In this document: positions 12,973 to 63,737 of the stretch, one piece after another | Numbering within the stretch: position 1 is the first letter of the stretch | Layout: each line of letters begins with the position of its first letter | DNA from: Antedon bifida | Lineage: Eukaryota; Echinodermata; Crinoidea; Comatulida; Antedonidae | DNA length: 64,000 bases | Assembly (NCBI GenBank): GCA_963402885.1 | Contig: OY727101.1 | Location: 10,302,917-10,366,916 of the forward strand | Direction: 5' to 3' | The notes under the pieces: generated by a model | Database searches by the model: none | What the model saw: only the letters and a program-made list of their open reading frames with translations | What the model was told of the DNA's origin: nothing | Translations under genes and position numbers: made by a program

Positions 12973-12979
12973 TTACTTT

Positions 12980-15631: not shown

Positions 15632-15637
15632 TTTATT
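15632..15637 (-). promoter_or_regulatory. Polyadenylation signal, small secreted-peptide gene copy 3
   Basis: AATAAA on the minus strand about 100 bases after the stop at 15738, matching copy 2. Confidence 0.5.
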
Positions 15638-15737
15638 ATTATTATTATTATTACAACTAATATGAGTGCATTAAATGACATTAACGTGTACATTTAAAAC
15701 TTGTCATGCTTCGTAGTATTCGTAGTACAATTTTCTA

Positions 15738-16760: not shown

Positions 16761-16919
16761 TTTATAAACCATGTATCTGTTAACAACAAACAAATTTAAA
16801 TATTATCACAATTATATTGTTTGAAGGTTTGCATGGCGAAATCAAATGTTTGCGGTACACCACGTATATTAGTTCTGAAAAGAACTGTTGAGTTTCTTGA
16901 CGTTTCGATCAATTATGCT

Positions 16920-17680: not shown

Positions 17681-17797
17681 AGGACTAGAAACCACGACAT
17701 CTGGCCATTAGTGAAATAATTATAAAGCTTTGTCATCAGGCAATAAGTACAAGTGTAGCATCCAAGTATTGGTCGTTGGAAATGGAAATTATTTTCA

Positions 17798-17823
17798 CCC
17801 AGTCAGTTTCAACTGACTGGGTC
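17798..17823. repeat. Perfect short hairpin
   Basis: CCCAGTCAGT, a TTCA loop and ACTGACTGGG form a 10-bp perfect stem. The paralogue at about 13117-13140 has one mismatch in the stem. No gene association is evident. Confidence 0.5.
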
Positions 17824-18734
17824 CTGTTTTTTAGCCGCTTTTTTTCATTCTACAAACACTTTAAAATGCTCCTAGTTGCTCCTAGCTAGACTGGTCTAGT
17901 ATGACTGGCACCACCCATTTCATTTATAATTAGAATGTCGCGAAGGGGTGTAATTTTAAGTTTTCCTAGCTTAATAGCTTCGAGCATTTTCTGATACACT
18001 GATTTATGTAATGTAGAAAGAGAGAAAAAATATCACTATTAAATTAGTTTTCCTCATTGTCTGAGGGCAAAGCTTTTTACGCATGTGACAAGCAGTCAGT
18101 TGGATATTTTTAAATAGATCTTTCAAAAAAGAAAATCTTATGTTTTATAAACATAGAAGCTAGGTAAAATTCTTCGATGATTAGAGGAAAATTTAACAGT
18201 TATTTGATCATGGAGCTGATTTCAATCAAAATTCCTCAATAAAAATGCATTGATGGTTCAATCTCCAACTGACTGTGTTCATGTTCTATAATATAGTAGC
18301 TCTAGTTATTATCATCACCGATGTGTTGAAATGTTGAAATGTGAATATGCTAACACGTTTGTGAAAAAACGGCCATAGGTTTTCATTATTCTATACATTT
18401 ATTCTATACATTGAAAATATACTTTGTTTGTATAGTTATAAAATTAGAATATAGCATTCAATATAATATATCTGATATTCTACTTATAAATATGTAACAA
18501 TAATATTTATCGGTATCTTTAATTTAAAACACATGCTGAATTGAAATCTATAATTCACATAAATAAAGAAAATACGAGGTATAGAACCGCAATCCCAAAT
18601 ACAAAGTAAAATATTATAAATACTGACCTACATTGGTTGGTTACGTTACATCATTAATGTACATCGTTAATCATTCTTTATACTTTTAGTTTTAATTGTT
18701 TGGAAGCATCACATAAGTGATTACGTTTGCCACG

Positions 18735-19133
18735 CTAGTTTATTACTCACAATTATTCACAATTCCAATTAATTTCCTAATAATTATCTTAGTGCTAAAA
18801 CTGAGTCTACATAACATGTTTTCATCAATAAAAAATACTCTCAATATTAAACTCATAAACATTCATTATTTCTATACCATTGAACTCTGTAACATTTTTT
18901 TGCATATTTGTCAATTCCTGAGTTAAACACACATACACTCGATAATATAAAAATAAATGAATACTTTCAATGATACAATTCATATAATCATAATTTAGCT
19001 ATCACTAATCTATAAGCATCTATATAAATATAAACAAATCTGAAGCAAACTTATTAGGCTTCTAGCAGAGCATGACTATAAAGGTTAATTCAAGTTTTTT
19101 TTCTTTCTAAAAGTTGTACCATCACCAGATCAT
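18735..19133 (-). other. Probable 3' UTR of the giant gene
   Basis: AT-rich sequence follows the stop codon at 19134-19136. The first clear AATAAA on the minus strand is near 18740, within sequence shared with 15190, so the true polyadenylation site is uncertain. Confidence 0.3.
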
Positions 19134-19208
19134 TCAGTACATGCGGTGATTCTCGTTTACATTTGAGTTATTGTCCTCTGCACTGACTTCATCGTCGTCA
19201 AAACGATT
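19134..19208 (-). CDS. Terminal cytoplasmic exon with stop
   Basis: Encodes 24 residues from NRFDDDEVSAEDNN to NHRMY, then TGA. Very acidic and polar, ending in tyrosine. The acceptor is TTTTAATAG; it joins in phase 0. Confidence 0.8.
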   Translation of the reverse strand, partial: NRFDDDEVSAEDNNSNVNENHRMY

Positions 19209-22200
19209 CTATTAAAATATAAAAAAATAATATATATTTATTCATAGTGGAATCTTAATAATCTTTATTAGTCTAGTTACTAGAATATTTTTGGTAGTAT
19301 ATATAAATTAATTATACATATTTATTTAAAAAAACAAAGTAAATATATTGGAAGTAATTAAACGAGATAAAATGTTAACTACAAATCAAATTAACGATTG
19401 TACTTACCATTGATACATCGTGTGCTTTGTTAACGAACCCACTTGCAACATACGGGTTCAGAAAACCATTCTTATCATTTATACTGCGAGAACGATCATC
19501 AAAGCTCTAATGTGACAAAAATAAAAAATAATTGAGTATTTCAGCTGGTAGTAAACTGGTATGTAGGCTACAATATCTTAATTTAGAGAGCAATCGTAAT
19601 AGGAGATGTGAGTTAAGACCAACACGGACATTCAAATCGTAACATCTATTTCTAAACTTCAATGTTTAAACACTTTTTTAAAAGTGTTTAAACAACTGTT
19701 CATTTTTCTTTGCTTATAAATTTGAGAGCTTTAAATTCACAAAAAAAGGTTTGTCTTTTAGGACAAATAAAGATAATAACAAATAATTTGTCTTACAAGA
19801 CTTGACTCCTCACGAAGATCATAACCATTTTCCGCAAGAGGTGGGTTATAAAACACAGGTGCTATTGCAGGTGATGCTCTGACAATCGTTGGTGTACCAA
19901 TAATTCGATGGTCATCATCATAGAGAGCGCCCTTTCGATGACGACGTCTTGCGCCTAAGAGCCAGCAACAGAATCCAGCGAGTATTATGAATACAAATAT
20001 AAATGCAGCCACGGAGCCTAGAACCACGCCAATCACACCGAAATCATCGCCTGTAAGAGGATGATTGCATATTAGTTATTGTGATATTTTACAATACATT
20101 GCACTCAATAATGTTTGTTTTTATTTAGGTTCACAACACTTTTAGAAAAATAAAATAAATTTCTAAACAAAATATAGGAATGTGTCTATTTTATTTTGTT
20201 TTAGACAGGGTTTTGTCCACAATTGTCTTCTCATTATGTAAGCTATACTAATTGTTACCAATCTATATCTGATTATTCAATTCATACAAATAGAGCGAAA
20301 CAATCACAACTCTTATGTACCTTTTTCTGGTTTAACTTCCACTTCGCAATTGTCACCCGTGTACGCATCTGCACATCTAAAAGATAATATATGAACACTG
20401 TACACTGTGTACTACAGCAAAGTAGTAACTTTATATTTATAAACTCTATATCACAACGCTTGGTTTATCCAAGTTAATTCTTAATGCATCAATTATTGAA
20501 GCACCCGATTGGGTTGTTACTCTAGTAAATTACATTAATAAATTACTCTATTCCAACATTCTATCGATATGGGATTCATTCTTGAAATGATATAAGTATT
20601 AATCAATGTACAATTAAACAACCTTTGTCTAGATCTGAGGTAATGAAACAACCCCTCTGTAGAAATGTATATATGAATCACTATATAAAAATGGATTGAA
20701 TCTGGAATGATTACAATTGAAGACATAGTATCTTCAAAAGAGAAGACATGTAATAAGTTAATGAAGAAACATATATATAATAGAGTACTATTGTATTAAG
20801 AAAGCTATTCTTAAAGATTGGTTCAGACTGTGTCTGTGTAGAAAATAATAATATATATAAATGAAAAGATTAAGGAATCAGAATGTATATTTAAATTGTT
20901 ACATAAGATTCTACCTACTAATGACAAATTAGTGTATTGGAAAAATAAAAACTGTAAAGATTGTGAAAAATGCAAGGTAACTGAAAAGTTCATCTTTTGG
21001 AAAAATGTAAGATAGCGGTAGCCTTTTGGAACAAAATATGTTGTTACTTTAAGAATTTTAATCTTACTCATTTTAACTTTAATTTCCTTTTTAATTTATT
21101 AACCAAAGAGACCCTTTATATTTATCTACGTTTTTAGATGCTCAAGTCTATTCGTATTTTCATATTTCATCAGAGCATATTCCATTATCGTAACTCGAAT
21201 AGATTCCAAGCAGACTTTAGTATCTTCTACATAACGGAATTACAGTATTCACTCTCAGAGAATAAAATCGCGCTACCATTTTCCACTTACAATATTGAAT
21301 AGTTGAACATTTCATTCTCTACGCGATTTCATTTTTCCCTGATTGTTGATTTGTAATCACACATTGTAACCTTCACAACTATATTATTATCTCTTGAATC
21401 ATAACTTTAAATTGAATAACTTACGTGCACATGCTAGCATATGTGTCCTGGTTTATTGAACATGTACCTCCATTCAAGCAGAAATTCGGCTGACATATTT
21501 CTGGTAAAACAGCAATTTATTTTAGTTTGACAAATTTGTAACTGGATTGTATCAAAATAATAACGTTGCTAACGATGATAACAGTATTATTAATATTGAT
21601 ACACTTTCTACCAAATTTAACTTATAATTCTATTTCAAGCACCACTTGTGATACACATAAGATACAGTATTATAGAATTTTCCTATGGTACTAGGCCAAA
21701 TATTGTCGTATGGAGATAGCACTGAGCATCAGGTAGGAAATGTTTAAATTTAAAAATGTACTGTAGAAAGGATACATACCTTCTATAACTTGATATGATT
21801 CTGGTTCCAAATCTAGAATAGACTCAGCAAGCATACCATCATTTGCAACATTATCAAAAAATATGTCATTTACATCTGGTGCTGTCGTATTTGATTCATA
21901 ATCAAACTGAACAACATACTGTACTTTTATACTTCCACTGGAAAATCCAAAAACATACACTCCTGTAAAGCCTGTTAAAACTTGAAACACTCCAGTGAGT
22001 GCCTCAATCACTTTATTTTCCAAATCTAAATATTCTGCTGATGTTGAATCTGTATAAACTGCCGTAAATATTGCTGTGGCTTCTCCAATTTCAGCAATAG
22101 CGAATTCACCAGTAATTTCTTTGGATACTAGTAGAAGAAATATAAATGTACCGTACTTTAAATTAGTATTCTAACATGCATATATGATATCTAAAAACTA

Positions 22201-25200
22201 TGATAACTTTATAAAATGGTAGGCTGCAAGTGTAGTTGGGTTAATGTGTATCATTTGAATGGCAGCATAGACCTATTTTACGAAACTCTCTTTCAGCGAA
22301 TGGAAAATGTATCCTCTTCAATAGAAAAAAAAAAGTAAATATAAAACATTCATTTTTTGTTTTATAACACCTACACCTACAGTTTTAAACTAAACTTAAA
22401 ATTATCCGCTGATTTCATAATTTAATAAATTTCGTTCAGAATAACTGATTTTTCAACCACAGAGTAGAGCAGTTATACACGCTATAGATTGTTAAAAACA
22501 GTCACCAGAAAATTTACAAAAAAAATATTTACAAAAACTAAATATAACCACTTCTTACAAGAACTATTAAATATTACTTTACCATGCACTAGAACTAAAT
22601 ACAGAATGCCATTGATACTAAATTAACCAATGAGATAGTAAGAACACACCCAGGTATGTTATAACAAAATATAAAATAATATATATTGTTTAACTTTAAA
22701 AATGAATGTTATACTTACAGACACAAACAGAACCTTTAAGATGAAAGCCTGGTTGACACTGGCATGAGTAACTTCCGTACGTGTTTTTGCAAATTAGATC
22801 ATTGTCGCATACACTATTGTCAGATGATGTGCATTCATCCACGTCTAGAAATTTAAGCATAAATTAATTGAAGTCAAGTTAACATCTTTTTATATAGCAT
22901 AATTAAAGAGTCGGCAGCACAACGGCAGTGCATTGTATTGCATACAACGTGCGCGTGCATCATTGAATGTGTCTATACTTAGTGTCAACAACAAAAAAGA
23001 TGTTTTTCTGCTATCACATAATCATTTAAAAAAATTATTATTAACCTCTCTATCTTGATGGTACAACTGAAGAAATACAATAGTTAATTGTCTAACCTGT
23101 TTGGCACAAATCTCCGGTCCAACTTGAGGAACAGGAACATTCATAACTATCTTCAACTCTTGTACACACACCTCCGTTTAGACATGGGACTTCTGCACAT
23201 TGTCCATTTCCTGAGTATCACAAGAACACGTTGAAAATGTTACTGGGGCAATTTTATTGGTACGAGACAAATATATTGACATTCTGCAATAATCGAGAAC
23301 AAAACCTACCAATATAAAAAGCGCCGCCTTGGACTTCATTACCAGTTGGAAGGGTACCGTCATTCAGTACTGCATTCAAAACGGATTCTACATCAGCTTC
23401 AGTAACAGACGATCCTTCTTTAAATACGAGTGCATAGTCAACTACGACATCGTTGTTGACATCGAAAGAATAGCCATTAATTGTAACACCAACTATACTA
23501 GATGCAAGTTCACTCTGTCTTAGAACATCTTCAATCTAAATATAATAAGAAAACAAAATACTGATGATGTTCTGCAGAATAAGAATGAAAACGGCAATAA
23601 ATAATATTCTATCGATTTGAAATTAATCACAAGTAGGCCTATAATAATTAAGAAAATTTGGATCAGTATACTATTTTCAGAACTAATAAATAAATATATA
23701 TTGTTTTTTATTCGATTAATCCGCTTATTTTATGAGATTATGGAGAATATATCGTGAAAGAAAGACTTTCTATTCAATGAGGCGGATCCGAGTTATATTG
23801 AACAGTCATGTTTATAATAAATGAAAATATTTATCCTATTAGTCAAATTTAGGCAAACCCAATTTGTGTTTTTTATAATATTATGTAGCATTAGGGTTGA
23901 GGGATGGGGAAGTGAGATAGGTGCAAAGAGGCACAATTTTTAAATACTGTATATTCTTTATCCACTCAGTAACAACATTTATTTGTTTTCAGTAAAATAT
24001 TTGCGATTTAATACTTCGTTAAAACTGTCACCGTCATTAGTCGATTGAAATAGTAAAATAGAATGTAACGACGTTTATATGTTTTGTAATTTATAAAAAC
24101 GTTGACAAGCAAATGTCAGTAATAAAGTATTTGTATAATTATGTGTTTATGTATCTAACAGTACACACACTGAGAGACTATGAGATACTCAGTAACAACA
24201 TTTATTTGTTTTCAGTAAAATATTTGCGATTTAATACTTCGTTAAAACTGTCACCGTCATTAGTCGATTGAAATAGTAAAATAGAATGTAACGACGTTTA
24301 TATGTTTTGTAATTTATAAAAACGTTGACAAGCAAATGTCAGTAATAAAGTATTTGTATAATTATGTGTTTATGTATCTAACAGTACACACACTGAGAGA
24401 CTATGAGATTGGAATGTTCCATTCATCGCCAAGCAATACGTTTGTATAAACGTATATTAAATCTGTTAAAATAGTATTTTTTTAAAGAAAGTTGGTTTGT
24501 CTTTAACATTATGATACTGTACACAAGCTGGTTGACCAGTTTCGGCTATATTTATTCAATTATCGTAGAAGAAGATAGGTAAATGCGGAGCATCCACGTA
24601 TTATTGTGGGCGGGTATTTTTCAGCATGGACATCCATTAGACAGTGTATAACATGATTGGAAAAACACATTTATTTGGTGCAAATCGTTGAAGCTAAATT
24701 CATTTTAACTGTCATTAACTAATTATCTAACTAAACCTAATTAGTAAATAGGGTTACATTAGGTGGTTAAAATCAGTACCGAAAGTATCAACCAACTTTA
24801 TATACCATCGAGTAAAAATTCAAACAGTAACCTGTCTTTACGTAAATTTACAGCTCACTATGTCGGTCGGTTGGTCGGTCGGTCGGTAAACACTAACTCA
24901 AATTTGAGCACGCGGCTGCAGCCATGTATATGGCCTTATTTTTTAATAAGGAATATATTTTTTATTAGTATGATTTGCATTTATGTAATATTTAATCTGT
25001 GATATGTACTTACATCCTCTTGCAGTCCTGATAGAATATTTTCAGAATCTTCTTCTGAAAAACCTCCAGTAATTCCACCAATGGAATTGAAAGTTGTGCT
25101 ACCTTGTATCTCACTGGTAACTATTTTAGTTAGGAAAATAATTTTAGATACAGTTTATGTACAATTTTCTTTGGTAGTCAATTATTACCGTACGTCAATT

Positions 25201-58200: not shown

Positions 58201-61200
58201 AAGAAATTTCGAATTACTTTCGTAGGATGGACATTCATCACCATCAACCCATTCAAACGTCCCTTCTGTTACTGTATCAGAGTAACCAATCCACGAGCTT
58301 TCACTTAACCCTAGAAGGTTTAAGATCATGGAGTTTTCATCACTGTCAGAGATCATTACTAAATTTGAATTTGACTGGCTTTCTCCGCATGAAGTACTGG
58401 CATCGGTCCATCTCGTTTGAGTGTCGAAGTGTTTGTAACAATTGCCCCGCCATGTAATCCAACCAGATGGACAACGAACAGCTAATGAATAATAAATACA
58501 AATTAATTATACATTAGCATGTTTTGTTGCTCCAAAAAAAGGAACTCTTCTTTCTTTTCCCCAACCATTTCTCGCTCTATTAAACGGGTTGTTACACATA
58601 CATGAAGTAAAAGTTAGGTCAAATTAGTTATACAAGTTATGTTAAGACATGAAAATACAAGCAAACAATAAGTTCTAAAAAAAGATCGCACCCATTTCAC
58701 AAACAGCGGGTCTTGTAGCTGTACATGTTTGGTCATTCCATAGTCCAGTTTGAAGTAACTCTACACAGTCTTCATTACTATTATAATCATCCGGGTTACT
58801 TCCAGACCAATCTGAGGTGAAAGATAATTGTTAATGTGTATTTTAGTATTTATTTAAAAACTGAATGTATGTACAGAGATTGTCTAGTTACTTTCCTCTG
58901 TGCAGTGTTGTGTATAATTTTGTATTAAGTTTTCTATATGGTGATTACAATGCATATTTGTACTGTACCTCGCTCATTCAATATTCTATAAATCAAACAC
59001 TTACTTGTGTATTCCGATACCTCTTCGAATAACCGACTAACCCAGGCAAATGTTCCTTCTGATGTTACATCATCATAGCCAATCCAAGCGCCATTATTCC
59101 AATTTCCCGAACCTAGTACACTATTTAGCTGATCTACGATCCATGTGTTTTCTTCGTCTCCAGCAATAGTTGCCAACTGTGAGTTCTCGTCTGCGTTCTG
59201 ACATGCTGCTGCTGCATTGGCGTAAGTATTTGCATCGCTTACCATTAGGAAACAACTTCTCTCGTAGTAAGCCCATCCAGTCGGACAAACTGAATTAAGG
59301 AAAAAAAAGACACACGCACATTGCTATTATGTTGTAATGACTAGAGGACAAGCAAAGTTCATCGTTCATTTGTCGTAAGGTTATGATATTATTTCGTACC
59401 TATTCTTTATAGATACATTGAAATAAATAGAAATAGTATTTAAAATGCCCTCCAGAACGACGCAACTCCAGCCCCCCCCCCCCCTCCCCCTCCAAACCAA
59501 CTAATATGTTAAACGTAATATAATTCTATCCATAGGTATATAACTTACGAGTAACTAATATATCCCATTCCACTGTTGTGTTATGGCCAGCATTGTCAAA
59601 AACAGTATAAGTAACAGTGTAAGGAACGACGCCACCGGTATATGACATGCTATCACCAGATGCATAATTGGTATCTATGCTAGCAATTCCACTCAAGTCA
59701 GAAAAGACTGGCGTCGCCCAGGTTGGTAAAGCATATTCCAAACCATCAATTATTTCAATTTCAAAATCCTCTGGATAAGAATCTGCAATTGGAGGTTCTG
59801 TATCTAAAATTGAAACGTAAATAAAAATAATAAATATTTAAAAGGTTGACAGTACATAACTGCTGAAAATCATGTCAAATATTATGGGTTGGTTGAATGA
59901 ATTATACTTTAAGCATCTCACAAATAAGGTATGATAAATTATATAATTTTACGTGTCAATTACGTTAAAAATTGTTTTTCGTTTTAAAAATGCCGACTTC
60001 CTACCTGATATAACTGAAATTACAAAAGAACATGTTGCTGTATTGCCTGATACGTCAGTAGCCGTGTATGTAACAGTCGTATCCGTCTGAGTATTCAACA
60101 GTGTACTGAACGTGTCACTAGAATTATAGTTTGACACAACGGTATCAATGCACCGATCATCTGTCGCCGTTGGTTCCGTCCATGTTACTACTATGGATAA
60201 TTCGTCCTCTTCTGTGATGAGAATCTGGTCATTAGGGCAAGTGACTCCAAATGATGGCTCGGTATTGTCAGAAACTGAAATGTAAAAGCGTATTTTTTAC
60301 CAATTATTCGAGAGTTAAATATAGGCGCAGCCTAGGTTTCTCGTCTGGTGTTTTGTTAGGAAGGTGGCTTTTCTCGCATCTAAACTGACAATGTTCAAAT
60401 TGAATTTGTCCAAATGAATTACAACACTTACATATTTCGCAAACATATGCTATGGTCTGGGAACATGACAAGTCATTCCATTGATCTGAGGATGCTTCCA
60501 CTTCTACGCAGTTTTCACTAACACCACCATTTGGTTCGTTTGAATTAAAATCTAAAAATTCAAAATAAGAAACACATCTGCATTAACCTCATTATTTGCC
60601 TATGATGCATAAGATGTGCTCTTGCTGAAAAACATAGACATATCTCTGCACTTTTGGTTGAGATCAGTTAATCATTAACCATAATGAAAGCTATTATAAT
60701 AGAGATGACAATTCGCAAAATTAATTTTATGTTAATATTCCTGTCGCGTTAACCATGGACCTCTCACCTCACGTTCTTTATCGCCTGGCAAGTACAGTAT
60801 ACATATGTGCTTTTATTATTTTTTTACTAACTTACTTTCAAATGAAGAACATTTTCCAGAGGACGACCATACAAAAGTACCCTCAGATACAGAATCGGTA
60901 TAACCAATCCATGCATCATTTGCAAGACCAATTTCTTCTGTGACAATCCTGTTCTCATCTGCATTTGCTATAGTCACCAAATAACCATTGGTGTGCAAGT
61001 TGTTGCAAGCCGTTTCAGCGGCAGACCACGTTTCTGTGCCTTCTACATACTGATAGCAATGACCCAACCAGAACACCCAACCATCAGGACAACCGACCAC
61101 TGAAGCGAACGAGTGTAAATGAATTAAATAATTATTACAATAGTTTTATGATTTCTTTTCAGTATTATTGTATCGCGCGCAAGTACAAATTAACGAAAAT

Positions 61201-63737
61201 TAAAATTCTTTAAAACTTTATTTCAGGATTCATTTTAATTAGAAATTATTCAACAAGCCAAATACCAGATTTATTATTAATTAATAGTGATTTAATTATT
61301 TTCAGATTATGTTTTCAAGAGCATCCCAGCACCCAAATACGATTAAGCCTACCTTTTTCGCAGACAGCGATCTGAGACGTGGCAGTACACGGCTGATCAT
61401 TCCATGTGCCATCTGTATTTAATTCAGTACAATCTTCATTATTCGAATTGTCTGGTTGGTTTGATCCCCAGTCTATAATGAAAATAATAATTTGCATATA
61501 TGCATGGTCTATACCTTAGTAACTGGTAAGGGTGGGTAGAAAGTTCTTTTTAGTATCATTTATTTCTGGTTGGGTCATAGAGAGACGCATGATTGTGCCT
61601 ATTTGACCTAATCTATTTAGCCATGGACTATTAGGTCCATGATTTAGCTATCAATCCAATTTGACAATATTTTGCTTTAAATTACAGTTTTTTAAGTAAA
61701 TAAATTTTCTAGTGAACATACATGTAAAATTTGAAAACTTGTCATCCGTGTAATGAGTCTGGCCTTTTTTCCCCTTAAGGCACCCTACTAAAAGCAGTAT
61801 GCCATAAGAAGCGCGTCTTGAAGTGTTAACAATCAAATTTGGAAAAGGAGGGCGCATATAATAAATCTACTTCAGGACTATTTTAAGCAAAATGGATTGT
61901 ACTTCTTTATGGTACCCTATTCATAATAATTGTTTGCTTACTTTCATACACTGACCCCTCACGTGCCGTTTGTTCTGCCCATTCAAACTGGCCTTCAGTA
62001 GATATATCATTATAGCCTATCCAAGCGACTGTCCATCCTGGATCGTCTGCGTCAAGCTTGCTTTGTAACCACGTGTTTTCATCTTCACTTGAAATAACCG
62101 TCAAATCCCCTCCATCTTCACCTTGACAATACGTTTGTGCATCTGCATAGCTGCCCGTAGTGGTGTACACGAAGTAACAACTTTCAAATTCTGTGTTCAG
62201 CTCCCATCCTATTGGACAATCTGTTGATTCAAATTTTTAAAATCTATATGGATTATTTATTTTAATCGTTTAATAATCAATAATAAATACGACGTGATAT
62301 AAAACTCTATGCCATGTCATAATTATGTAGATTGGTTATGCGAGGCAATCTAACAGAAGGATGACGAGCATACATAGTACAGTACTCCGTTGGTATTTGT
62401 CGCAGCCAGACATAAGATCAAAGGACGACGAGTTGGCAAGGCGAGCCCAGTGTTCTGATGTTAAATTGTCTTGGGTTATGCCATTTTGTATTGTAATACG
62501 CGTCACCACCATCATTAAGAATTCGGAACAACTGATAGAAATGTTTTAAACGATTCAGCTTTTGAAGAATGTAAATATACGTTTTCTCCAACGATCTCTC
62601 GTCAGAACCACGCTTAATTGGCATTCGGCGTTTTTCCTATGTTTAACGATAAAAAATATACGTACAAGATACAGTTGCTGTGAAGGCACACGTTTCAGAC
62701 GGATTACCAGCTCTATCATAAGCTACATACGTGACGTCGATGTACGCGCTGTATTCTCCTTCAGGTATTGTGATGGAATGGCCAGGAGAATGAGATTCAT
62801 CTTCACTTACAACACATTCATTGTCTGTAAACGTAGGTGGCGTCCACGTGACTGTTGCTGATGTGTCCCCCAGGGGTACAACAGTCTCTACATCACTAGG
62901 GCATGTTGATGTTGTAGGTATTTCATTGTCCTCAACTGAAATGTTGAAAAAATAATTGTTTCTTAAAATATTAAATTTCTATAAAAATGTCCATACATAT
63001 TCTTCCTTATATAATGTATTCTTTAATGTATTTAATCAAGATAGATAATATTTCTCTGTACACAGCAGACTTCCTCTGGCCATCTTTATCTGCTGTTAAC
63101 AGTTAAAAAAGACATGAGAGCATCAATTAAATTACACTAGTTATGCGTTCCCCACCCACAACTGTATTCCAGTAAAAACTTTCTTGTGATGTAGATATCC
63201 TTTAATGGTCTAAACAAAAATGGTCTATCAGTGCATAGTGAATACACGTGGTAAGCCTAAGTATTTTAATTGTTATAAACTTAATAAAAACATCCTATTT
63301 ATGTATGTGTAAGCTTGAATTCACTTAAATTTTCTAGATTCACTTCAAGAAGCCTCTTTCAAGATTTCCTAAGTGTGGTTTTTTAAATTACTGTTTTAAA
63401 GCAATTAATATACATTGGCCGGTAGAGCATCATTTTGAATCTTCTGCAAATAGATTCGGTACTTCGGTTGGGTTCGTGTTAAGGGTGCAATTTACGGGCT
63501 ATCTTACACTATTTAATCTACAATATAAAATATGCACTTCTGAGCTCAAACCAAACTTACACTAGTTCAGGTAGTGTTTTATTAACTGCATTTTAAATAT
63601 TCTTTATTACTTACACATTTCGCAAACATAACCAAGTTCTGTACTACATCTCAAGTCATTCCAACGGTCTGAATTGCTGTAATCAAGCTCAACACAGTCT
63701 TCATCTCCAGAATTGTTAGGTTCACCAGAGTTAAAAT
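19134..63737 (-). CDS. Giant CTLD-HYR-SEA-EGF transmembrane protein (5'-partial, 84 exons)
   Basis: A single minus-strand gene is inferred because consecutive exons have compatible phases from 63737 to 19134 and no internal stop, start or terminal exon intervenes. In-window coding length is about 19.5 kb (about 6,490 residues). Domain order is CTLD1(C half)-HYR1-CTLD2-CTLD3-HYR2-HYR3-CTLD4-CTLD5-HYR4-CTLD6-CTLD7-HYR5..62-SEA-EGF-cbEGF-SEA-EGF-TM-cytoplasmic tail. HYR domains are immunoglobulin-like beta folds used in adhesion and matrix proteins; CTLDs can bind sugars with calcium; SEA domains often self-cleave near membranes. A type I membrane protein for adhesion or recognition is inferred; the signal peptide must lie beyond 64000. 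Two adjacent genes cannot be excluded without transcripts, but the phase continuity argues for one. Confidence 0.85.
19408..19506 (-). CDS. Cytoplasmic tail exon
   Basis: 33 codons, phase 0 on both sides (SFDDRSRSIND...FLNPYVASGF...VSM), with GTAAGT donor. Holds a single tyrosine in NPYVAS, a possible phosphorylation or adaptor site (inference). Confidence 0.8.
19797..20050 (-). CDS. Transmembrane and juxtamembrane exon
   Basis: Begins GDDFGVIG, then a hydrophobic helix (VVLGSVAAFIFVFIILAGF) followed by CCWLLGARRRHRKG. The basic stop-transfer stretch fixes type I orientation. The remainder is cytoplasmic, with tyrosines in ALYDDD, VFYNPP and NGYDL. Phase 1 in, phase 0 out. Confidence 0.9.
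20321..20376 (-). CDS. EGF3 second half
   Basis: Phase 2 to phase 1. Encodes CADAYTGDNCEVEVKPEK; completes the EGF begun in 21425-21500 and supplies its last two cysteines just outside the membrane. Confidence 0.8.
20377..21424 (+). mobile_element. Intron with L1-like LINE fragment
   Basis: Within this intron, plus-strand bases about 20600-21130 retain L1-type reverse transcriptase tail motifs in broken frames: QPLCRNVYM, then FKLLHKILPTNDKLVYWKN and CKDCEKCK. Stops and frameshifts are numerous, so it is a dead fragment inserted antisense to the host gene. Confidence 0.5.
21425..21500 (-). CDS. EGF3 first half
   Basis: Phase 1 to phase 2. Encodes ICQPNFCLNGGTCSINQDTY and ends MCT; the CLNGGTC core is classic EGF. 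The domain is split by a phase-2 intron, unlike the other two EGFs of this gene. Confidence 0.85.
21780..22127 (-). CDS. SEA domain 2 (membrane-proximal), single exon
   Basis: 116 codons, phase 1 to 1. Opens SKEITGEFAIAEIG and follows the SEA pattern: helix around EYLDLENKVIEALTGVF, strand VYVFGF, then SSGSIKVQYVVQF, and a second helix after NTTAPDVNDIF. GSIKV sits where self-cleaving SEA domains carry GSVVV. Cleavage between G and S would leave the ectodomain held non-covalently. Confidence 0.8.
22128..22718. other. Intron, no gene seen
   Basis: About 590 bases of AT-rich intron without recognisable coding or repeat structure. Confidence 0.6.
22719..22844 (-). CDS. Calcium-binding EGF domain (EGF2)
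   Basis: Starts DVDEC, the calcium-binding EGF signature, continues through SVCDNDLICKNTYGSYSC and ends CQPGFHLKGSVCV. The NTYGSYSC segment fits the beta-hydroxylation-type consensus. Six cysteines, one symmetric phase-1 exon. Confidence 0.9.
23097..23210 (-). CDS. EGF1
   Basis: Six cysteines: GQCAEVPCLNGGVC, then SYECSCSSSWTGDLC. Standard non-calcium EGF, phase 1 to 1, between SEA1 and the cbEGF. Confidence 0.9.
23310..23535 (-). CDS. SEA domain 1, second exon
   Basis: Phase 0 in, phase 1 out. Encodes IEDVLRQSELASSIVGVTI, GYSFDVNNDVVVDYALVF and TEADVESVLNAVLNDG. The helix-strand-strand-helix order is SEA-like, but the cleavage loop reads NDVVVD without the G-S pair, so this copy is probably not self-cleaving. 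Confidence 0.7.
23964..24409. repeat. Identical 223-bp tandem duplication
   Basis: Each copy runs from ACTCAGTAACAAC to ACTATGAGAT. No difference was found by eye. It may be a very recent duplication, an allelic variant or an assembly artefact. Confidence 0.85.
24838..24930 (+). repeat. CGGT-rich dispersed repeat, intronic copy
   Basis: Shares CTCACTATGTCGGTCGGT, then TAAACACTAACTCAA and GCACGCGGCTGCAGCCATGTA with the reversed copies at 9105-9195 and 17266-17356. Confidence 0.7.
25014..25120 (-). CDS. SEA domain 1, first exon
   Basis: Phase 1 in, phase 0 out, donor GTAAGT. Encodes FTSEIQGSTTFNSIGGITGG, then FSEEDSENILSGLQED. It links HYR62 to the SEA core. Confidence 0.7.
25237..25488 (-). 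CDS. HYR62 (last HYR)
   Basis: Cysteine pair GCPSSQ...ATCSF. Core HWDIPTVTDN and TYTATDENSN. Longer C-terminal edge (SLYS) where the HYR stalk passes into the SEA domain. Confidence 0.85.
25489..25903. other. Intron, no gene seen
   Basis: About 415 bases, AT-rich; the plus-strand ORF here has no recognisable protein character. Confidence 0.5.
25904..26152 (-). CDS. HYR61, cysteine-free
   Basis: DLPADI and TASFSV replace both cysteines. The loop NNPTEFEVGTWEV departs from the usual SPGxxFxxGTTxV. Confidence 0.85.
26426..26659 (-). CDS. HYR60
   Basis: TCPEDQ...VTCSF. Its N-terminus is shortened: it starts DLISLTCPED, lacking the D-x-E-x-P-P lead of its neighbours. Confidence 0.85.
26660..27209. 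other. Intron, no gene seen
   Basis: 550 bases of AT-rich intron; no exon-like HYR piece found. Confidence 0.5.
27210..27455 (-). CDS. HYR59
   Basis: GCSGDI (serine instead of the usual proline after Cys) paired with AICTF. Acceptor chosen at TGCAG because it keeps phase 1; an AAG three bases further is also possible. Confidence 0.85.
27887..28135 (-). CDS. HYR58, cysteine-free
   Basis: NTPEDI and TTQFTV replace both cysteines. Ends IQ with donor A|GTAAGT, so the junction codon with HYR59 becomes Lys. Confidence 0.85.
28265..28380. repeat. Intronic copy of the repeat next to the small-gene blocks
   Basis: Shares about 80 bases with 890-975, 8690-8760 and 16850-16925 (segment GTATATTAGTTCTGAAAAGA and following). 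The right part (GATTTCGCCAT...) is inverted relative to those copies, so the element is rearranged or palindromic. Confidence 0.65.
28401..28652 (-). CDS. HYR57, cysteine-free
   Basis: SFPADI and IDMFTV replace both cysteines. Begins GQTDTEAP. Confidence 0.85.
28930..29184 (-). CDS. HYR56
   Basis: GCPSDF...AVCSF; starts EEFVDTDPP, three residues longer at the N-terminus than most, like HYR55. Confidence 0.88.
29272..29526 (-). CDS. HYR55
   Basis: GCPNDI...AACIF; two in-phase acceptors nine bases apart (TTTAG then ATAG) could start it as EFIDNN or DNN. Confidence 0.85.
29780..30028 (-). CDS. HYR54
   Basis: ECPEDV...AQCTF; core SWDDPVATDN and IAIDTSGNSA. Confidence 0.88.
30190..30255 (-). 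repeat. Partial duplicate of the HYR53 exon end
   Basis: About 60 bases repeat the 3' end of the HYR53 exon and its donor flank (compare 30256-30315). The donor copy reads ATATC instead of ATACC, losing GT. It acts as a non-spliced echo in the intron. Confidence 0.7.
30279..30521 (-). CDS. HYR53
   Basis: SCPATI...ASCSF; unusually acidic lead (VEAAEETESA). Confidence 0.88.
30522..30896. other. Intron, no gene seen
   Basis: 375 bases, AT-rich, no recognisable structure. Confidence 0.5.
30897..31121 (-). CDS. HYR52, short
   Basis: 75 codons. NCPADI...NYCVF; six residues are missing between the first cysteine and LWEPPTATDN, and the DNSG turn reads DNTV. Confidence 0.85.
31122..31502. other. 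Intron, no gene seen
   Basis: 380 bases with no recognisable structure. Confidence 0.5.
31503..31739 (-). CDS. HYR51
   Basis: ECPVSQ...ADCTF; DSTNVNVT replaces the usual DNSG turn. Confidence 0.85.
31936..32160 (-). CDS. HYR50, short
   Basis: 75 codons. GCPSDI...AQCQF; the segment before VDWASPSALDN is shortened, as in HYR52. Confidence 0.88.
32354..32599 (-). CDS. HYR49, cysteine-free
   Basis: DVPTNI and EYSFLV replace both cysteines; core SWTSPTVTDN. Confidence 0.88.
32655..32724 (-). repeat. Local duplication of the HYR48 donor region
   Basis: TATGTGCCTAATAAACTACA followed by TACCATT occurs twice within 70 bases, so a second potential donor lies just outside the HYR48 exon. Confidence 0.65.
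32722..32964 (-). CDS. HYR48, three cysteines
   Basis: YCPDDITSCND gives an extra cysteine close after the first; the partner is ATCSF. Core IWIAPTVHDN. Confidence 0.85.
33086..33325 (-). CDS. HYR47
   Basis: NCPDTI...ALCQF; donor GTGAGC. Confidence 0.88.
33509..33751 (-). CDS. HYR46, cysteine-free
   Basis: SVPTAV and VETFTV replace both cysteines; the strand reads VVVTATDEVGN. Confidence 0.85.
33884..34126 (-). CDS. HYR45, cysteine-free
   Basis: NLPADI and THEFTV replace both cysteines; core EWDEPTASDNAG. Confidence 0.88.
34292..34531 (-). CDS. HYR44
   Basis: TCPAGI...GTCSF; core SWEEPTATDNSG. Has no internal start-like codon, so it is easily missed as an ORF. Confidence 0.85.
34623..34865 (-). 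CDS. HYR43, cysteine-free
   Basis: DVPEDR and TVSFVV replace both cysteines; core TWVAPTVTDNSAG. Confidence 0.85.
35118..35360 (-). CDS. HYR42, cysteine-free
   Basis: SVSDAT and TTSFDV replace both cysteines; aromatic core YWTIPTFNDNTG. Confidence 0.88.
35510..35752 (-). CDS. HYR41, cysteine-free
   Basis: SIPEST and TESFSV replace both cysteines; the loop reads TSPALFPIGTT, without the usual SPGxxF glycine. Confidence 0.88.
35964..36209 (-). CDS. HYR40, cysteine-free
   Basis: SAPEAQ and MHSFVV replace both cysteines; core TWDEPEASDNSG. Confidence 0.88.
36374..36616 (-). CDS. HYR39
   Basis: GCPLNI...ATCSF; core IWIEPEATDNSG. Confidence 0.88.
36617..36942. other. Intron, no gene seen
   Basis: 325 bases, AT-rich; nothing recognisable. 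Confidence 0.5.
36943..37188 (-). CDS. HYR38, atypical core
   Basis: SCPAEA...AECSY keep the pair, but the tryptophan strand is replaced by VLLPDPNPIDN, so the fold may be altered locally. Confidence 0.85.
37483..37725 (-). CDS. HYR37
   Basis: DCPGDI...ATCVF; loop STIASSSDFSVG lacks the usual PG. Its 3' part is copied at 37820-37885. Confidence 0.88.
37780..37885 (-). pseudogene. Truncated copy of the HYR37 exon end
   Basis: Near-copy of 37440-37547: donor flank plus the last 20 or so codons (through AVYVT-equivalent), after which similarity stops at GTATGTAAC. No acceptor side remains, so it cannot be a normal exon. Confidence 0.75.
37914..38035. mobile_element. MITE-like element in intron
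   Basis: Ends are inverted copies: AGCTCTGTCTAGACTATCAA at the left and its near reverse complement (one mismatch in about 24) at the right. A TTA next to each end may be a target duplication. About 120 bases, non-coding. Confidence 0.65.
38052..38294 (-). CDS. HYR36, cysteine-free
   Basis: DIPNDL and SSSFIV replace both cysteines; core TWTEPTAVDNSG. Its 5' end is echoed at 39089-39165. Confidence 0.88.
38295..39212. other. Intron with transposon debris and partial HYR exon
   Basis: About 38360-38960 looks like the 3' remnant of a plus-strand non-LTR retrotransposon. It ends ...GATGGTGATAAATAAACAAA, but no motif is certain. Bases 39089-39165 repeat the first codons and upstream flank of HYR36. 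Confidence 0.4.
39089..39165 (-). pseudogene. Partial copy of the HYR36 exon start
   Basis: Matches 38258-38345: the acceptor side and the first dozen codons (DDET-PALSDIPSD-like). The acceptor reads CTCTTAG, but no HYR body follows, so it is a fragment. Confidence 0.65.
39213..39461 (-). CDS. HYR35, cysteine-free
   Basis: NLPIDV and TSSFTI replace both cysteines; core TWSAPSITDNVG. Confidence 0.85.
39629..39871 (-). CDS. HYR34, cysteine-free
   Basis: NVPSDI and EESFTV replace both cysteines; core TWDTPSASDNSG. Confidence 0.88.
40112..40357 (-). CDS. HYR33
   Basis: NCPSDI...ETCTF; the loop between strands reads DTASPANVET, longer than usual. Confidence 0.88.
40476..40724 (-). CDS. HYR32
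   Basis: TCPDNI...DTCEF; core SWTEPNPIDNSG. Confidence 0.88.
40725..41233. other. Intron with a minisatellite
   Basis: Bases about 40890-41080 hold four imperfect units of roughly 40-60 bases with CTTTCTTTCCGTACGCCAT(T/C)AAG. The open frame across it is only the repeat read through. Confidence 0.7.
41234..41476 (-). CDS. HYR31
   Basis: GCPTTV...AECLF; core TWTVPSATDNSG. Confidence 0.88.
41596..41844 (-). CDS. HYR30
   Basis: LCPDDI...ASCSF; reads WSISSSDNSD in place of the W-x-x-P-T-A-x-D-N core. Confidence 0.82.
41957..42208 (-). CDS. HYR29, divergent
   Basis: SCPVFP...ATCSF; the middle reads EYDFQYPVQAYTISI, lacking the GTTxVxYTA strand. Confidence 0.85.
42298..42786 (-). CDS. HYR27 and HYR28 fused in one exon, cysteine-free
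   Basis: 163 codons hold two complete HYRs with no intron. The first starts DDEPPVLSNVPENI and the second DDEPPTITNGPIDI; both lack cysteines. They meet at TVTITDDEPP exactly where an intron lies everywhere else, pointing to precise intron loss, for example by partial reverse transcription. Confidence 0.9.
42787..43472. other. Intron with diverged short repeats
   Basis: Bases about 43030-43290 hold two or three imperfect units of roughly 115 bases with AAGTGGTTCAGAAT-like starts, TGGAG(C/T)CATT and AACTATATAC. Non-coding. Confidence 0.5.
43473..43721 (-). CDS. HYR26
   Basis: TCPDDI...DECSF; strand IIFEAIDLSGN; donor GTACGA. Contains no internal ATG and is easily overlooked. Confidence 0.85.
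43893..44135 (-). CDS. HYR25
   Basis: NCPVNQ...TECLF; core TWTPPVATDNVG, ending FNIEVIG. Confidence 0.88.
44378..44626 (-). CDS. HYR24
   Basis: GCPSDT...GVCTF; SVWSPPSARDNVE core; donor GTGAGT. Confidence 0.88.
44835..45086 (-). CDS. HYR23
   Basis: TCPSNI...VLCVF; NWTEPDASDN core; loop VETVLFGLEPLEV is atypical. Contains no in-frame start, so only direct translation reveals it. Confidence 0.85.
45087..45633. other. Intron with long inverted repeat
   Basis: Arms 45239-45272 and 45296-45329 are reverse complements over 34 bases with one mismatch, separated by 23 bases. The rest is AT-rich. Confidence 0.75.
45239..45329. repeat. 34-bp inverted repeat (hairpin)
   Basis: The inner 28 bases of each arm are perfect complements (GTCTATACAGGTAGGTATCT on one side). 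No target duplication is obvious. It could be a folded-back transposon end or a structural hairpin in the intron. Confidence 0.85.
45634..45879 (-). CDS. HYR22
   Basis: NCPTDI...GNCTF; AWTEPSVTDN core; DQSHQPGNTFNFG loop. Confidence 0.88.
45880..46290. other. Intron, no gene seen
   Basis: 410 bases; a short T-run near 46070, nothing else. Confidence 0.5.
46291..46545 (-). CDS. HYR21
   Basis: NCPNDM...GYCNF; an extended turn DNVDPNPIVSALSIHSSG and a GPGYDIIYKAVD strand make it divergent. Confidence 0.85.
46670..46912 (-). CDS. HYR20
   Basis: ICPEDQ...VSCTF; THDPYTAFYDNADVFY replaces the SPGxxFxxGTTxV loop. Confidence 0.85.
47025..47285 (-). CDS. HYR19, diverged relative of type A
   Basis: SCPLDI...RVCSF; shares TDNSGETVTVT, LDSGLTSTITVTYEGTD and the 261-base length with the A-type exons, so it is probably an older member of that family. 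Confidence 0.88.
47549..47809 (-). CDS. HYR18 (type A, 4th copy)
   Basis: Starts DVESPVYDACPSSM; SSGLSNTVTVTYDGVD; QCTFDITV. Protein identical by eye to HYR14. Confidence 0.92.
47993..48253 (-). CDS. HYR17 (type D, 3rd copy)
   Basis: NCPSNTNQNTD where the other D copies read NCPSNINQ; THTPSTVVSL where they read IVV. Confidence 0.92.
48412..48672 (-). CDS. HYR16 (type C, 3rd copy)
   Basis: LDLCPSNQALS (others LDVCPS); DETPGV; TGGLPTTLTV. The intron to HYR17 is 158 bases, about 39 shorter than in copies 1 and 2. Confidence 0.92.
48837..49097 (-). CDS. HYR15 (type B, 3rd copy)
   Basis: GCPSDATFDTDPGEAY; SSGLTAMETITYTLVD; DCTFTVTV. Donor GTACGT. Confidence 0.92.
49306..49566 (-). CDS. HYR14 (type A, 3rd copy)
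   Basis: VYDACPSSMTPNTDAGES; otherwise as HYR18. Confidence 0.92.
49751..50011 (-). CDS. HYR13 (type D, 2nd copy)
   Basis: NCPSNINQNTD; THTPSIVVSL. The 184-base intron downstream is nearly identical to that of HYR17. Confidence 0.92.
50209..50469 (-). CDS. HYR12 (type C, 2nd copy)
   Basis: LDVCPSNQ; DEIPGV (others DETPGV). Confidence 0.92.
50634..50894 (-). CDS. HYR11 (type B, 2nd copy)
   Basis: Same protein by eye as HYR15; silent changes only (for example ACCGTA versus ACTGTA near the donor). Donor GTACGT. Confidence 0.92.
51101..51361 (-). CDS. HYR10 (type A, 2nd copy)
   Basis: VYDVCPSSM (Ala to Val compared with HYR14 and HYR18). Confidence 0.92.
51540..51800 (-). CDS. HYR9 (type D, 1st copy)
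   Basis: NCPSNINQ; the exon is near identical to HYR13, but the downstream intron (51362-51539) diverges from its counterparts after about 40 bases. Confidence 0.92.
51995..52255 (-). CDS. HYR8 (type C, 1st copy)
   Basis: LDVCPSNQ; TGGLSTTLTV (others LPTTL). Confidence 0.92.
52420..52680 (-). CDS. HYR7 (type B, 1st copy)
   Basis: SSGLTALETITYTLVD (others TAMET). Donor is the stronger GTAAGT, unlike GTACGT in copies 2 and 3. Confidence 0.92.
52889..53149 (-). CDS. HYR6 (type A, 1st copy)
   Basis: Starts DAEIPVYNACPSS and reads NTDTGES; its 5' flank is unrelated to the other A exons, marking the start of the amplified block. Confidence 0.92.
53240..53503 (-). CDS. HYR5, with third cysteine
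   Basis: NCPVDQ...GTCIF plus an extra cysteine in SDNQCVI. Follows CTLD7 directly. Begins FVDTENPTF. Confidence 0.9.
53504..54607. other. Large intron with plus-strand open stretch
   Basis: Separates the lectin region from the long HYR stalk. See the 53876-54300 entry; the rest is AT-rich. Confidence 0.5.
53876..54300 (+). other. Possible nested plus-strand coding remnant
   Basis: After a strong acceptor (TTATTTTATTCAG) a 62-codon open frame includes NRLNHIKNVVEITGPTCVL and FGRSFEQKDILEIGNVGA, then GTAAAT. Just beyond it an ATG opens MSVYIFEDMIDNVISQNDV to a stop, followed by AATAAATAAAG. It looks like the 3' end of an unrelated gene or element in antisense. Family not recognised. Confidence 0.3.
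54608..54724 (-). CDS. CTLD7, C-terminal exon (EPN)
   Basis: DWNTNEPNGG gives the EPN triad of mannose-type lectins; ENCVN, WNDLSC and VCEM follow. Donor GTATGT. 39 codons. Confidence 0.9.
54956..55219 (-). CDS. CTLD7, N-terminal exon
   Basis: Starts VVKCPESWVLWQRSCYF; WADASTSCQ; VWIGYSDVSTEGTFEW; ends DNGECSTFT, whose cysteine is a seventh, outside the six of a long-form CTLD. Confidence 0.92.
55512..55631 (-). CDS. CTLD6, C-terminal exon (QPD)
   Basis: DFISGQPDD with the QPD triad of galactose-type lectins; QDCTE, WNDNDC, VCEK. Confidence 0.88.
55632..56104. other. Intron inside CTLD6, no gene seen
   Basis: 470 bases of AT-rich intron. Confidence 0.5.
56105..56374 (-). CDS. CTLD6, N-terminal exon
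   Basis: CPDGWELWERSCYLF; SRTFCQ; AWIGYSDTNTEGTFEW; ends VEVSYYE without an extra cysteine. Confidence 0.92.
56375..56695. other. Intron with unassigned minus-strand ORF
   Basis: A 61-codon minus-strand ORF (56460-56645) holds RYVDFPNADQEGTLFVLDGQ; not recognised and not phase-compatible as an exon of this gene. Confidence 0.4.
56696..56962 (-). CDS. HYR4, with third cysteine
   Basis: TCPSDV...GTCSF plus DNECVV. Follows CTLD5. SEDTESPTY start. Confidence 0.9.
57248..57370 (-). CDS. CTLD5, C-terminal exon (NPD)
   Basis: DWISGNPDNHGSDEDC, WNDATC, ICEI. NPD stands where EPN or QPD occur in the other CTLDs, so specificity is unclear. Confidence 0.9.
57371..58217. other. Intron inside CTLD5, possible retroelement debris
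   Basis: About 57900-58125 on the plus strand ends with ATCTATCTATCTAT and AATAAATG, reminiscent of a decayed non-LTR element, but I find no certain motif. Confidence 0.3.
58218..58481 (-). CDS. CTLD5, N-terminal exon
   Basis: AVRCPSGWITWRGNCYKHF; TRWTDASTSC; SWIGYSDTVTEGTFEW; ends VDGDECPSYE with an extra cysteine. Confidence 0.9.
58692..58811 (-). CDS. CTLD4, C-terminal exon (NPD)
   Basis: WSGSNPDDYNSNEDCVE; WNDQTC; AVCEM. Donor GTGCGA. Confidence 0.88.
59005..59289 (-). CDS. CTLD4, N-terminal exon
   Basis: CPTGWAYYERSCFLM; AAAACQ; AWIGYDDVTSEGTFAW; ends EEVSEYT with no extra cysteine. Confidence 0.9.
59470..59490. repeat. Poly-C tract
   Basis: A run of about fourteen C followed by TCCCCC in otherwise AT-rich intron; its length is likely error-prone or polymorphic. 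Confidence 0.8.
59549..59803 (-). CDS. HYR3, divergent and cysteine-free
   Basis: SYPEDF and VEWDIL replace both cysteines; TWATPVFSDLSG core; YTVFDNAGHN. Confidence 0.82.
60005..60274 (-). CDS. HYR2, with third cysteine
   Basis: TCPNDQ...ATCSF plus DDRCID. Follows CTLD3. FSDNTEPSF start. Confidence 0.88.
60432..60551 (-). CDS. CTLD3, C-terminal exon (EPN)
   Basis: DFNSNEPNGG; ENCVE; WNDLSC; YVCEI. Confidence 0.9.
60836..61099 (-). CDS. CTLD3, N-terminal exon
   Basis: VVGCPDGWVFWLGHCYQ; WSAAETAC; AWIGYTDSVSEGTFVW; ends SSGKCSSFE with an extra cysteine. Confidence 0.92.
61353..61472 (-). CDS. CTLD2, C-terminal exon (QPD)
   Basis: WGSNQPDNSNNEDCTE; WNDQPC; AVCEK. Confidence 0.9.
61473..61941. 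other. Intron inside CTLD2, no gene seen
   Basis: 468 bases; a minus-strand ORF at 61651-61857 is not protein-like. Confidence 0.5.
61942..62220 (-). CDS. CTLD2, N-terminal exon
   Basis: CPIGWELNTEFESCYF; DAQTYCQ; AWIGYNDISTEGQFEW; ends REGSVYE with no extra cysteine. Confidence 0.92.
62221..62665. other. Intron, no gene seen
   Basis: 445 bases of less AT-rich sequence; overlapping ORFs on both strands (62418-62624, 62562-62861) look accidental. Confidence 0.4.
62666..62935 (-). CDS. HYR1, with third cysteine
   Basis: TCPSDV...ETCAF plus TDNECVV; 90 codons, with the loop SPGHSITIPEGEYSAYIDV. FEDNEIPT start. Follows CTLD1. Confidence 0.88.
62936..63614. other. Intron, no gene seen
   Basis: About 680 bases with no recognisable exon or repeat. 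Confidence 0.5.
63615..63737 (-). CDS. CTLD1, C-terminal exon (EPN)
   Basis: DFNSGEPNNSGDEDCVE; WNDLRC; YVCEM. Its N-terminal exon lies beyond the window. Confidence 0.88.

What the first reader, a model, noticed from the sequence alone, without database searches (positions are those of the whole stretch)
19134..63737. A giant lectin-HYR-SEA-EGF membrane protein with at least 62 HYR domains
Seen: 84 phase-compatible minus-strand exons give CTLD, HYR, SEA, EGF, TM and tail in one line, about 6,490 residues with the 5' end missing. Known: hyalin and related proteins carry HYR arrays, but I know of no described protein with lectin pairs on a stalk this long plus a SEA/EGF membrane anchor. Inference: a long-reach surface receptor or adhesion molecule.
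Basis: partly seen in the sequence, partly recalled or inferred. Interest (0 to 1): 0.85.

Follow-up and report, generated by a model that had tools for sequence, protein, structure and literature searches.

The report
Giant lectin-tipped HYR membrane protein
A feather-star-like (crinoid) genome carries what looks like one 85-exon gene for a roughly 6,550-residue cell-surface protein that holds seven sugar-binding domains out on a very long, almost lysine- and arginine-free stalk, a new combination of known parts whose function is still untested.

Summary
My gene model has 85 minus-strand exons, 84 of 84 introns GT-AG, 6,551 aa, stop at 19134. Two exons lie beyond the window: one completes the first lectin domain, the other is a provisional signal-peptide exon. 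Order: signal peptide, seven C-type lectin domains interleaved with four HYR, 58 consecutive HYR, SEA, EGF, SEA, EGF, one transmembrane segment, about 110-residue tail. Pfam HYR matches 61 of 61 HYR exons; one holds two domains, so 62. No plausible internal start was found, but array exons are phase 1-1, so phase alone cannot prove one transcript. Mitochondrial data point to a crinoid. The stalk has 21 Lys/Arg in 4,819 residues against 677 Asp/Glu. SEA2 carries FSSGSIKVQY, close to the GSVVV self-cleavage motif; a paralogue has FSSGSIVVDF. Neither half is unprecedented: a sea-urchin HYR-SEA-transmembrane protein, EBR1_5, is published (PMC5521101), and this genome has an HYR-SEA-EGF-TM paralogue, a lectin-HYR-TM gene, and a lectin-HYR locus running into adhesion-GPCR domains. 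Verdict: real; new variant of a known kind; most likely a lectin-tipped surface receptor or adhesion protein, biology untested.

The parts
63615..63737 (-). second-half exon of CTLD1 (first half at 64598-64858, beyond the window; EPN, WND)
62666..62935 (-). HYR 1 (head)
61353..62220 (-). CTLD2, two exons 62220-61942 and 61472-61353 (QPD, WND)
60432..61099 (-). CTLD3, two exons 61099-60836 and 60551-60432 (EPN, WND)
59549..60274 (-). HYR 2 and HYR 3 (head), exons 60274-60005 and 59803-59549
58692..59289 (-). CTLD4, exons 59289-59005 and 58811-58692 (NPD, WND)
57248..58481 (-). CTLD5, exons 58481-58218 and 57370-57248 (NPD, WND)
56696..56962 (-). HYR 4 (head)
55512..56374 (-). CTLD6, exons 56374-56105 and 55631-55512 (QPD, WND)
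54608..55219 (-). CTLD7, exons 55219-54956 and 54724-54608 (EPN, WND); its donor at 54608 is the weakest of the model
25237..53503 (-). stalk: 57 exons with 58 consecutive HYR domains
47810..53149 (-). three copies of a four-exon HYR unit (1788, 1795, 1757 bp)
37819..37857 (-). remnant of a partial duplication of the HYR exon at 37725-37483; left out of the model
23310..25120 (-). SEA1, exons 25120-25014 and 23535-23310; no G-S at the cleavage position (by eye); acceptor 25120 is the weakest of the model
23097..23210 (-). EGF1
21780..22118 (-). SEA2, one exon, FSSGSIKVQY
20321..21500 (-). EGF2, exons 21500-21425 and 20376-20321 (sub-threshold in Pfam, matches solved EGF domains)
19797..20050 (-). 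transmembrane segment and start of cytoplasmic tail
19134..19506 (-). last two tail exons 19506-19408 and 19208-19134 with stop

Best explanation
One gene encodes a type I membrane protein of about 696 kDa. Shown by sequence: seven C-type lectin domains near the N terminus, 62 HYR domains of which 58 form an unbroken stalk, then SEA-EGF-SEA-EGF, one membrane span and a tail. Inferred: the lectin domains bind glycans through Ca2+ (three EPN mannose-type, two QPD galactose-type, two NPD sites, each with WND; meanings recalled) at the tip of an acidic rod of roughly 200 nm. SEA2 would cleave itself at G-S and stay together until pulled, acting as a breakable joint. The very low Lys/Arg content would make the stalk poorly cut by trypsin-like proteases. 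Most likely role: a tethered sugar-capture or adhesion receptor on an exposed surface such as epithelium or egg.
For: Phase-consistent model, 84 of 84 GT-AG introns, 80 of 85 exon starts in phase 1. Pfam support for Lectin_C, HYR, SEA and EGF. Gene penalties 15 and 8 left one gene; at 4 and 1 it split, but no new start was signal-like: two lay inside CTLD7 and CTLD5, one directly before an HYR exon. One signal-like phase-1 first exon in the 45.7-kb span, inside CTLD2's intron, none at the lectin-stalk border. The first stalk HYR groups with head HYR 1 and 4 (support 0.76). The stalk-anchor join recurs in the paralogue with the same lengths for the last HYR exon (252 nt), both SEA1 exons (107, 226 nt), EGF1 (114 nt) and the first EGF2 exon (76 nt). 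Duplicated HYR units show pN 0.006-0.012 against pS 0.035-0.039. SEA2 motif recurs in the paralogue. Stalk 21 K/R and 677 D/E in 4,819 aa. HYR pair model pLDDT 92.6, all beta; nearest solved folds SraP and cadherins.
Against: No RNA or protein evidence. Since nearly all exons are phase 1-1, any subset would splice in frame, so phase does not exclude two transcripts. The two key borders have the weakest splice sites of the model: donor 54608 after CTLD7 (2.8) and acceptor 25120 before SEA1 (0.7). The signal-peptide exon is provisional: two 49-kb control stretches gave 23 and 28 similar candidates in any phase, nested starts counted, against 36 upstream. The SEA2 model was poor (pLDDT 43.6). HYR pair TM-scores to solved folds are 0.25-0.51 among the 50 listed. 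Low Lys/Arg is shared by several other HYR loci here.
Confidence: 0.65

Rival explanations
1. Two or more genes lie head to tail: a lectin-HYR protein (68.4-54.6 kb or to within the array) and a separate HYR-SEA-EGF membrane protein.
For: The two halves occur apart elsewhere: an HYR-SEA-EGF-SEA-EGF-TM paralogue with no lectin domain found in the 20 kb read, and an intronless CTLD-HYR-CTLD-HYR-TM frame. Array exons are phase 1-1, so either reading splices. A 1,104-bp intron lies at the border, behind the weakest donor of the model (2.8). With almost no gene penalty one split falls between two HYR domains at 33501/33332.
Against: No signal-like first exon at the border or at any of the split starts. 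The HYR after that intron resembles head HYR 1 and 4 and is only 90 bp from the next stalk HYR. Elsewhere in this genome CTLD exons lead directly into HYR exons.
Confidence: 0.2
2. It is an egg-surface gamete-recognition protein, an EBR1-like molecule with a lectin head.
For: EBR1_5 of sea urchins, called a putative egg receptor protein, has seven HYR, a SEA and a TM, with positive selection restricted to three HYR domains (PMC5521101, passages). Homogenised HYR units fit repeat turnover.
Against: No expression data. The units here show purifying selection between copies, on small counts. No ADAMTS, TSP1 or CUB match was listed in the Pfam scans.
Confidence: 0.2
3. It is a mucin-like glycocalyx protein of gut or ambulacral epithelium, with an HYR rod in place of the mucin domain, capturing particles or microbes.
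For: EGF-SEA-EGF-TM order as recalled for MUC3/12/13/17; near absence of Lys/Arg and acidic stalk; lectin tip.
Against: No PTS mucin domain; low Lys/Arg is found in other HYR loci too; no localisation data.
Confidence: 0.35

Closest known systems
Sea-urchin EBR1_5 (putative egg receptor protein, 1,243 aa)
   Same: HYR repeats, SEA and transmembrane domain (PMC5521101, passages read)
   Different: seven HYR rather than 62; no lectin domains mentioned in the passage; its sequence was not compared here
Paralogue at G000:C9 about 2.107-2.161 Mb (L020, L021)
   Same: HYR array, SEA domains, EGF, SEA with FSSGSIVVDF, EGF, TM, tail with NPP and EN-x-YD; several anchor exons of identical length
   Different: no lectin domain found in the 20 kb read; three SEA instead of two
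Lectin-HYR locus at G000:C9 1.557-1.591 Mb (L026, L023)
   Same: CTLD exons followed by HYR exons, then EGF and a sub-threshold SEA
   Different: continues into Ig, a GAIN subdomain and 7tm_2, i.e. apparently an adhesion GPCR rather than a single-span anchor
Transmembrane mucins MUC3/12/13/17
   Same: EGF, SEA and TM near the membrane and a G-S cleavage motif (order recalled)
   Different: stalk is folded HYR domains, not a PTS mucin domain; lectin head
Hyalin
   Same: hyalin repeat domains; a sea-urchin cell-adhesion substrate (PMC9382459, passage)
   Different: secreted matrix protein with no lectin, SEA or TM (recalled)
Mannose receptor family and LY75
   Same: several CTLDs in a row on a single-span receptor (recalled); best solved matches to CTLD3
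   Different: no HYR stalk, SEA or EGF (recalled)

Membership tests
C-type lectin-domain proteins | Lectin_C (PF00059) domain | tested here: met
   3 stretches in residues 1-500 and 4 in the next piece, E 1.1e-55 and 3.1e-71
C-type lectin-domain proteins | Ca2+/sugar motifs (EPN or QPD with WND; recalled) | tested here: met
   EPN in CTLD1, 3, 7; QPD in 2, 6; NPD in 4, 5, which is not the classic motif; WND in 7 of 7 (alignment)
C-type lectin-domain proteins | glycan binding | not testable with these tools
   needs protein
HYR-repeat proteins | HYR domain (PF02494) | tested here: met
   61 of 61 exons match at E up to 0.001
EBR1 egg bindin receptor proper | ADAMTS-like region and TSP1/CUB repeats (recalled) | tested here: not met
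   no such match listed in Pfam scans of head, anchor and 61 HYR exons
EBR1_5-like HYR-SEA-TM proteins | HYR repeats, SEA and TM in one protein | tested here: met
   orthology not tested, no sea-urchin sequence was compared
SEA-type transmembrane mucins | SEA domain | tested here: met
   2 stretches, E 1.2e-14
SEA-type transmembrane mucins | PTS mucin domain (definition in PMC1552070, passages) | tested here: not met
   stalk exons are HYR, 61 of 61 with the head ones; no separate PTS predictor was run
Adhesion GPCR | GAIN and 7tm_2 domains | tested here: not met
   one span then stop at 19134; no GAIN in the anchor (E up to 1); no 7tm_2 hit listed in the window span (capped list)
Echinoderm, class Crinoidea (host) | echinoderm mitochondrial code and crinoid base bias | tested here: met
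   4 of 4 AAA codons of the COX1 stretch align with Asn and 4 of 4 AAG with Lys; 46.7% T, 11.4% C on the cox1 strand against 44.9% T, 12% C for Florometra

The most novel reading that the evidence does not exclude
Lectin-HYR ectodomains form a shuffled recognition module in this crinoid. They are mounted on different membrane machines, a self-cleaving mucin-like single-span anchor in the window and an adhesion GPCR at C9:1.56-1.59 Mb, with Lys/Arg-depleted, trypsin-resistant rods holding the sugar-binding tips far from the cell for microbe, particle or gamete recognition.
Probability: 0.35. Interest if true: 0.7.

Novelty: new variant of a known kind. Interest (0 to 1): 0.5.

Why it matters
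If it is one transcript, it would be an exceptionally long lectin-bearing surface protein and would show that HYR arrays can serve as folded stalks in place of mucin domains. The Lys/Arg-poor stalk and the conserved G-S motif make protease resistance and mechanical shedding directly testable. The same kind of lectin-HYR head on an adhesion GPCR would offer a natural comparison between an adhesive and a signalling version.

Tried and rejected
The first gene-finder run, with too small splice penalties, gave 967 exons over the whole region and was discarded. Structure of SEA2 alone was poor (pLDDT 43.6) and is not used as evidence. A profile search of HYR against solved structures gave one weak match, E 0.0049, not used. 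The EGF-SEA-EGF-TM piece matched EGF domains and, weakly, kexin (E 0.0022) but no solved SEA domain. The idea that low Lys/Arg is unique to this gene was rejected: six of eight other HYR stretches are at 0.2-0.9% and two at 2.3-2.8%; L003/L004 overlap and L020/L021 are one locus, so this is four low and two higher loci. The idea that the anchor is unique in the genome was rejected. Assembly duplication as cause of the four-exon units is unlikely: introns differ by 3-9% plus gaps. The exon-like piece at 37857-37819 was rejected as a domain. At another HYR locus end (L024) I found HYR and an EGF but no SEA or lectin match.

Literature: no paper held all of HYR domain, C-type lectin, SEA domain, EGF and transmembrane. 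Other searches were made; ten of ten used. Papers seen: passages of PMC9382459, PMC5856267, PMC4456727, PMC6954182, PMC5521101, PMC7351957 and PMC1552070; whole text of PMC7748595; others as search listings only. The EBR1 description paper is not held, so EBR1's ADAMTS/TSP/CUB make-up is recalled.

Full report
What was checked. The window lies at C14:10302917-10366916 of a 315.6-Mb genome in 27 contigs. I joined it to 50 kb upstream and 30 kb downstream. A local HYR profile found 63 matches, 62 full-length or nearly so and one fragment, all on the minus strand between 25250 and 62930, none in the flanks. A splice-aware gene finder with re-estimated codon and splice-site tables gave one gene of 82 exons.

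Final model. I corrected five exon edges, dropped the fragment and added one 5' and three 3' exons. The result is 85 exons, 19,656 nt including the stop, 6,551 aa; 84 of 84 introns are GT-AG, and 80 of 85 exons start in phase 1. Predicted mass is 696 kDa and pI about 4. Exon 2 (64858-64598) and the signal-peptide exon (68369-68309) are outside the window. For exon 2 I took acceptor 64858 (score 2.6) over the stronger 64803 (4.0), because the latter would cut off the start of the lectin domain. The signal-peptide exon was the only phase-1 candidate in 20 kb upstream under my criteria, but control stretches hold similar candidates, so it is provisional. The weakest acceptor is 25120 before SEA1 (0.7) and the weakest donor is 54608 after CTLD7 (2.8).

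Domains. Pfam finds seven Lectin_C stretches, HYR, two SEA and EGF; each of 61 HYR exons matches HYR. The head reads CTLD1-HYR, CTLD2-CTLD3-HYR-HYR, CTLD4-CTLD5-HYR, CTLD6-CTLD7, followed by 58 HYR. All seven lectin domains have WND; EPN occurs in three, QPD in two and NPD in two (alignment). What these motifs mean is from recall. A high-confidence model of an HYR pair (pLDDT 92.6) is all beta; nearest solved structures are the SraP binding region and cadherins, at modest TM-scores. With about 4 nm per domain (recalled for such folds), 58 domains would reach roughly 200-230 nm; this is an estimate.

One gene or several. Phase compatibility does not settle this, because any cut between phase 1-1 exons remains compatible. 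The model stayed whole at gene penalties 15 and 8, with and without the HYR bonus. At penalty 4 it broke before a start inside CTLD7; at penalty 1 also before a start inside CTLD5 and before one directly ahead of an HYR exon (33332), which is a domain boundary. None of these starts is signal-like (sequences). Only one signal-like phase-1 start lies in the 45.7-kb span, within CTLD2's intron. The HYR just after the 1,104-bp lectin-stalk intron groups with head HYR 1 and 4 (support 0.76) and is 90 bp from the next stalk exon. The stalk-anchor join, despite its weak acceptor, recurs in a paralogue with identical exon lengths: last HYR 252, SEA1 107 and 226, EGF1 114, EGF2 first exon 76 nt. So the stalk-anchor join is the safer of the two, and the lectin-stalk join is where the model could still fail. 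The weak donor and the conserved anchor exons pull in opposite directions, so I left the odds as they were.

Coding constraint. Three copies of a four-exon unit at 53149-47810 are 98.2-98.7% identical in exons but 91-97% in introns. Nei-Gojobori counts give pN 0.006-0.012 and pS 0.035-0.039, from 5-9 nonsynonymous and 9-10 synonymous differences per pair. The copies therefore look real rather than assembly duplicates, and under purifying selection.

Unusual composition. The stalk has 21 Lys/Arg and 677 Asp/Glu in 4,819 residues; the longest Lys/Arg-free run is 1,222 residues. ORFs of at least 50 aa on both strands of the first 19 kb have 11.1% Lys/Arg. Of eight other HYR stretches of this genome six have 0.2-0.9% and two 2.3 and 2.8% (six loci, since two pairs are not independent). 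It is a trait of several HYR arrays here, not of this gene alone.

Anchor and mechanism. SEA2 contains FSSGSIKVQY; the MUC1 cleavage motif is GSVVV, and GSIVA is also reported (PMC4456727 and PMC6954182, passages). The paralogue's third SEA has FSSGSIVVDF, while SEA1 of the window gene lacks the G-S at that place (by eye). Cleaved SEA domains are reported to stay intact until force is applied (PMC6954182, passage). I infer a breakable or sheddable joint.

Relatives in the genome. C9:2.107-2.161 Mb carries HYR exons with SEA, SEA, EGF, SEA, EGF, TM and a tail sharing NPP and EN-x-YD; I read 20 kb, its two ends. C14:19.027 Mb has an intronless CTLD-HYR-CTLD-HYR frame with a hydrophobic span. C9:32.81-32.86 Mb alternates CTLD and HYR hits. 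At C9:1.557-1.591 Mb CTLD exons lead into HYR exons, and the far end has HYR, EGF, Ig, a sub-threshold SEA (19.1 against 26.4 bits), a GPR128-type GAIN subdomain at threshold (22.1 against 22 bits) and two 7tm_2 exons: apparently an adhesion GPCR with the same kind of head. I read 30 kb there, not the middle of the array. A SEA search listed six matches at E up to 0.01: two are the window's own and two lie beside HYR hits on C8 and C9.

Organism. The 15,844-bp contig C27 is mitochondrial. In COX1 4 of 4 AAA codons align with asparagine and 4 of 4 AAG with lysine, as in the echinoderm code. The cox1 strand is 46.7% T and 11.4% C, and an ORF that I take by eye for nad4L lies between nad4 and nad5. 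Crinoid mitogenomes have this T bias (PMC7748595, whole text), and a unique nad4L rearrangement within crinoids is in a cited title. I conclude crinoid; the species is unknown.

Verdict. The gene model is well supported by sequence but not by transcripts. It combines known domains in a way for which I found no description in ten full-text searches of one open-access library. Both halves have precedents, so I class it as a new variant of a known kind.

Noticed in passing
G000:C9:1557188-1590549 (L026, L023): Lectin-HYR locus whose far end has EGF, Ig, sub-threshold SEA, GAIN and 7tm_2 exons: an apparent adhesion GPCR with a lectin-HYR head.
   Followed up: partly
G000:C14:19027037-19028584 (L022 1037-2584): Intronless frame of CTLD-HYR-CTLD-HYR with a C-terminal hydrophobic span, possibly a retrocopy.
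   Followed up: partly
G000:C9:32811948-32857936: Long plus-strand run of alternating CTLD and HYR hits, a further lectin-HYR gene or cluster.
   Followed up: no
G000:C8:12062000-12070415 and G000:C9:29638678-29781912: SEA and HYR hits near 7tm_2 hits on the same strand, suggesting more HYR adhesion GPCRs.
   Followed up: no
window 23964-24409: Perfect 223-bp tandem duplication in the intron between the two SEA1 exons.
   Followed up: no
window 1-19000: Region dense in repeats, such as 8339-9624 against 16509-17781 at 96% and 9902-11004 against 10671-11775 at 97%.
   Followed up: no
window 40904-41069: Tandem repeat of period 48, 3.6 copies, in the intron between HYR exons 41476-41234 and 40724-40476.
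   Followed up: no
G000:C8:5487692-5492513: Three HYR hits with equal scores at about 2.29-kb spacing, suggesting recent unit amplification in another HYR array.
   Followed up: no
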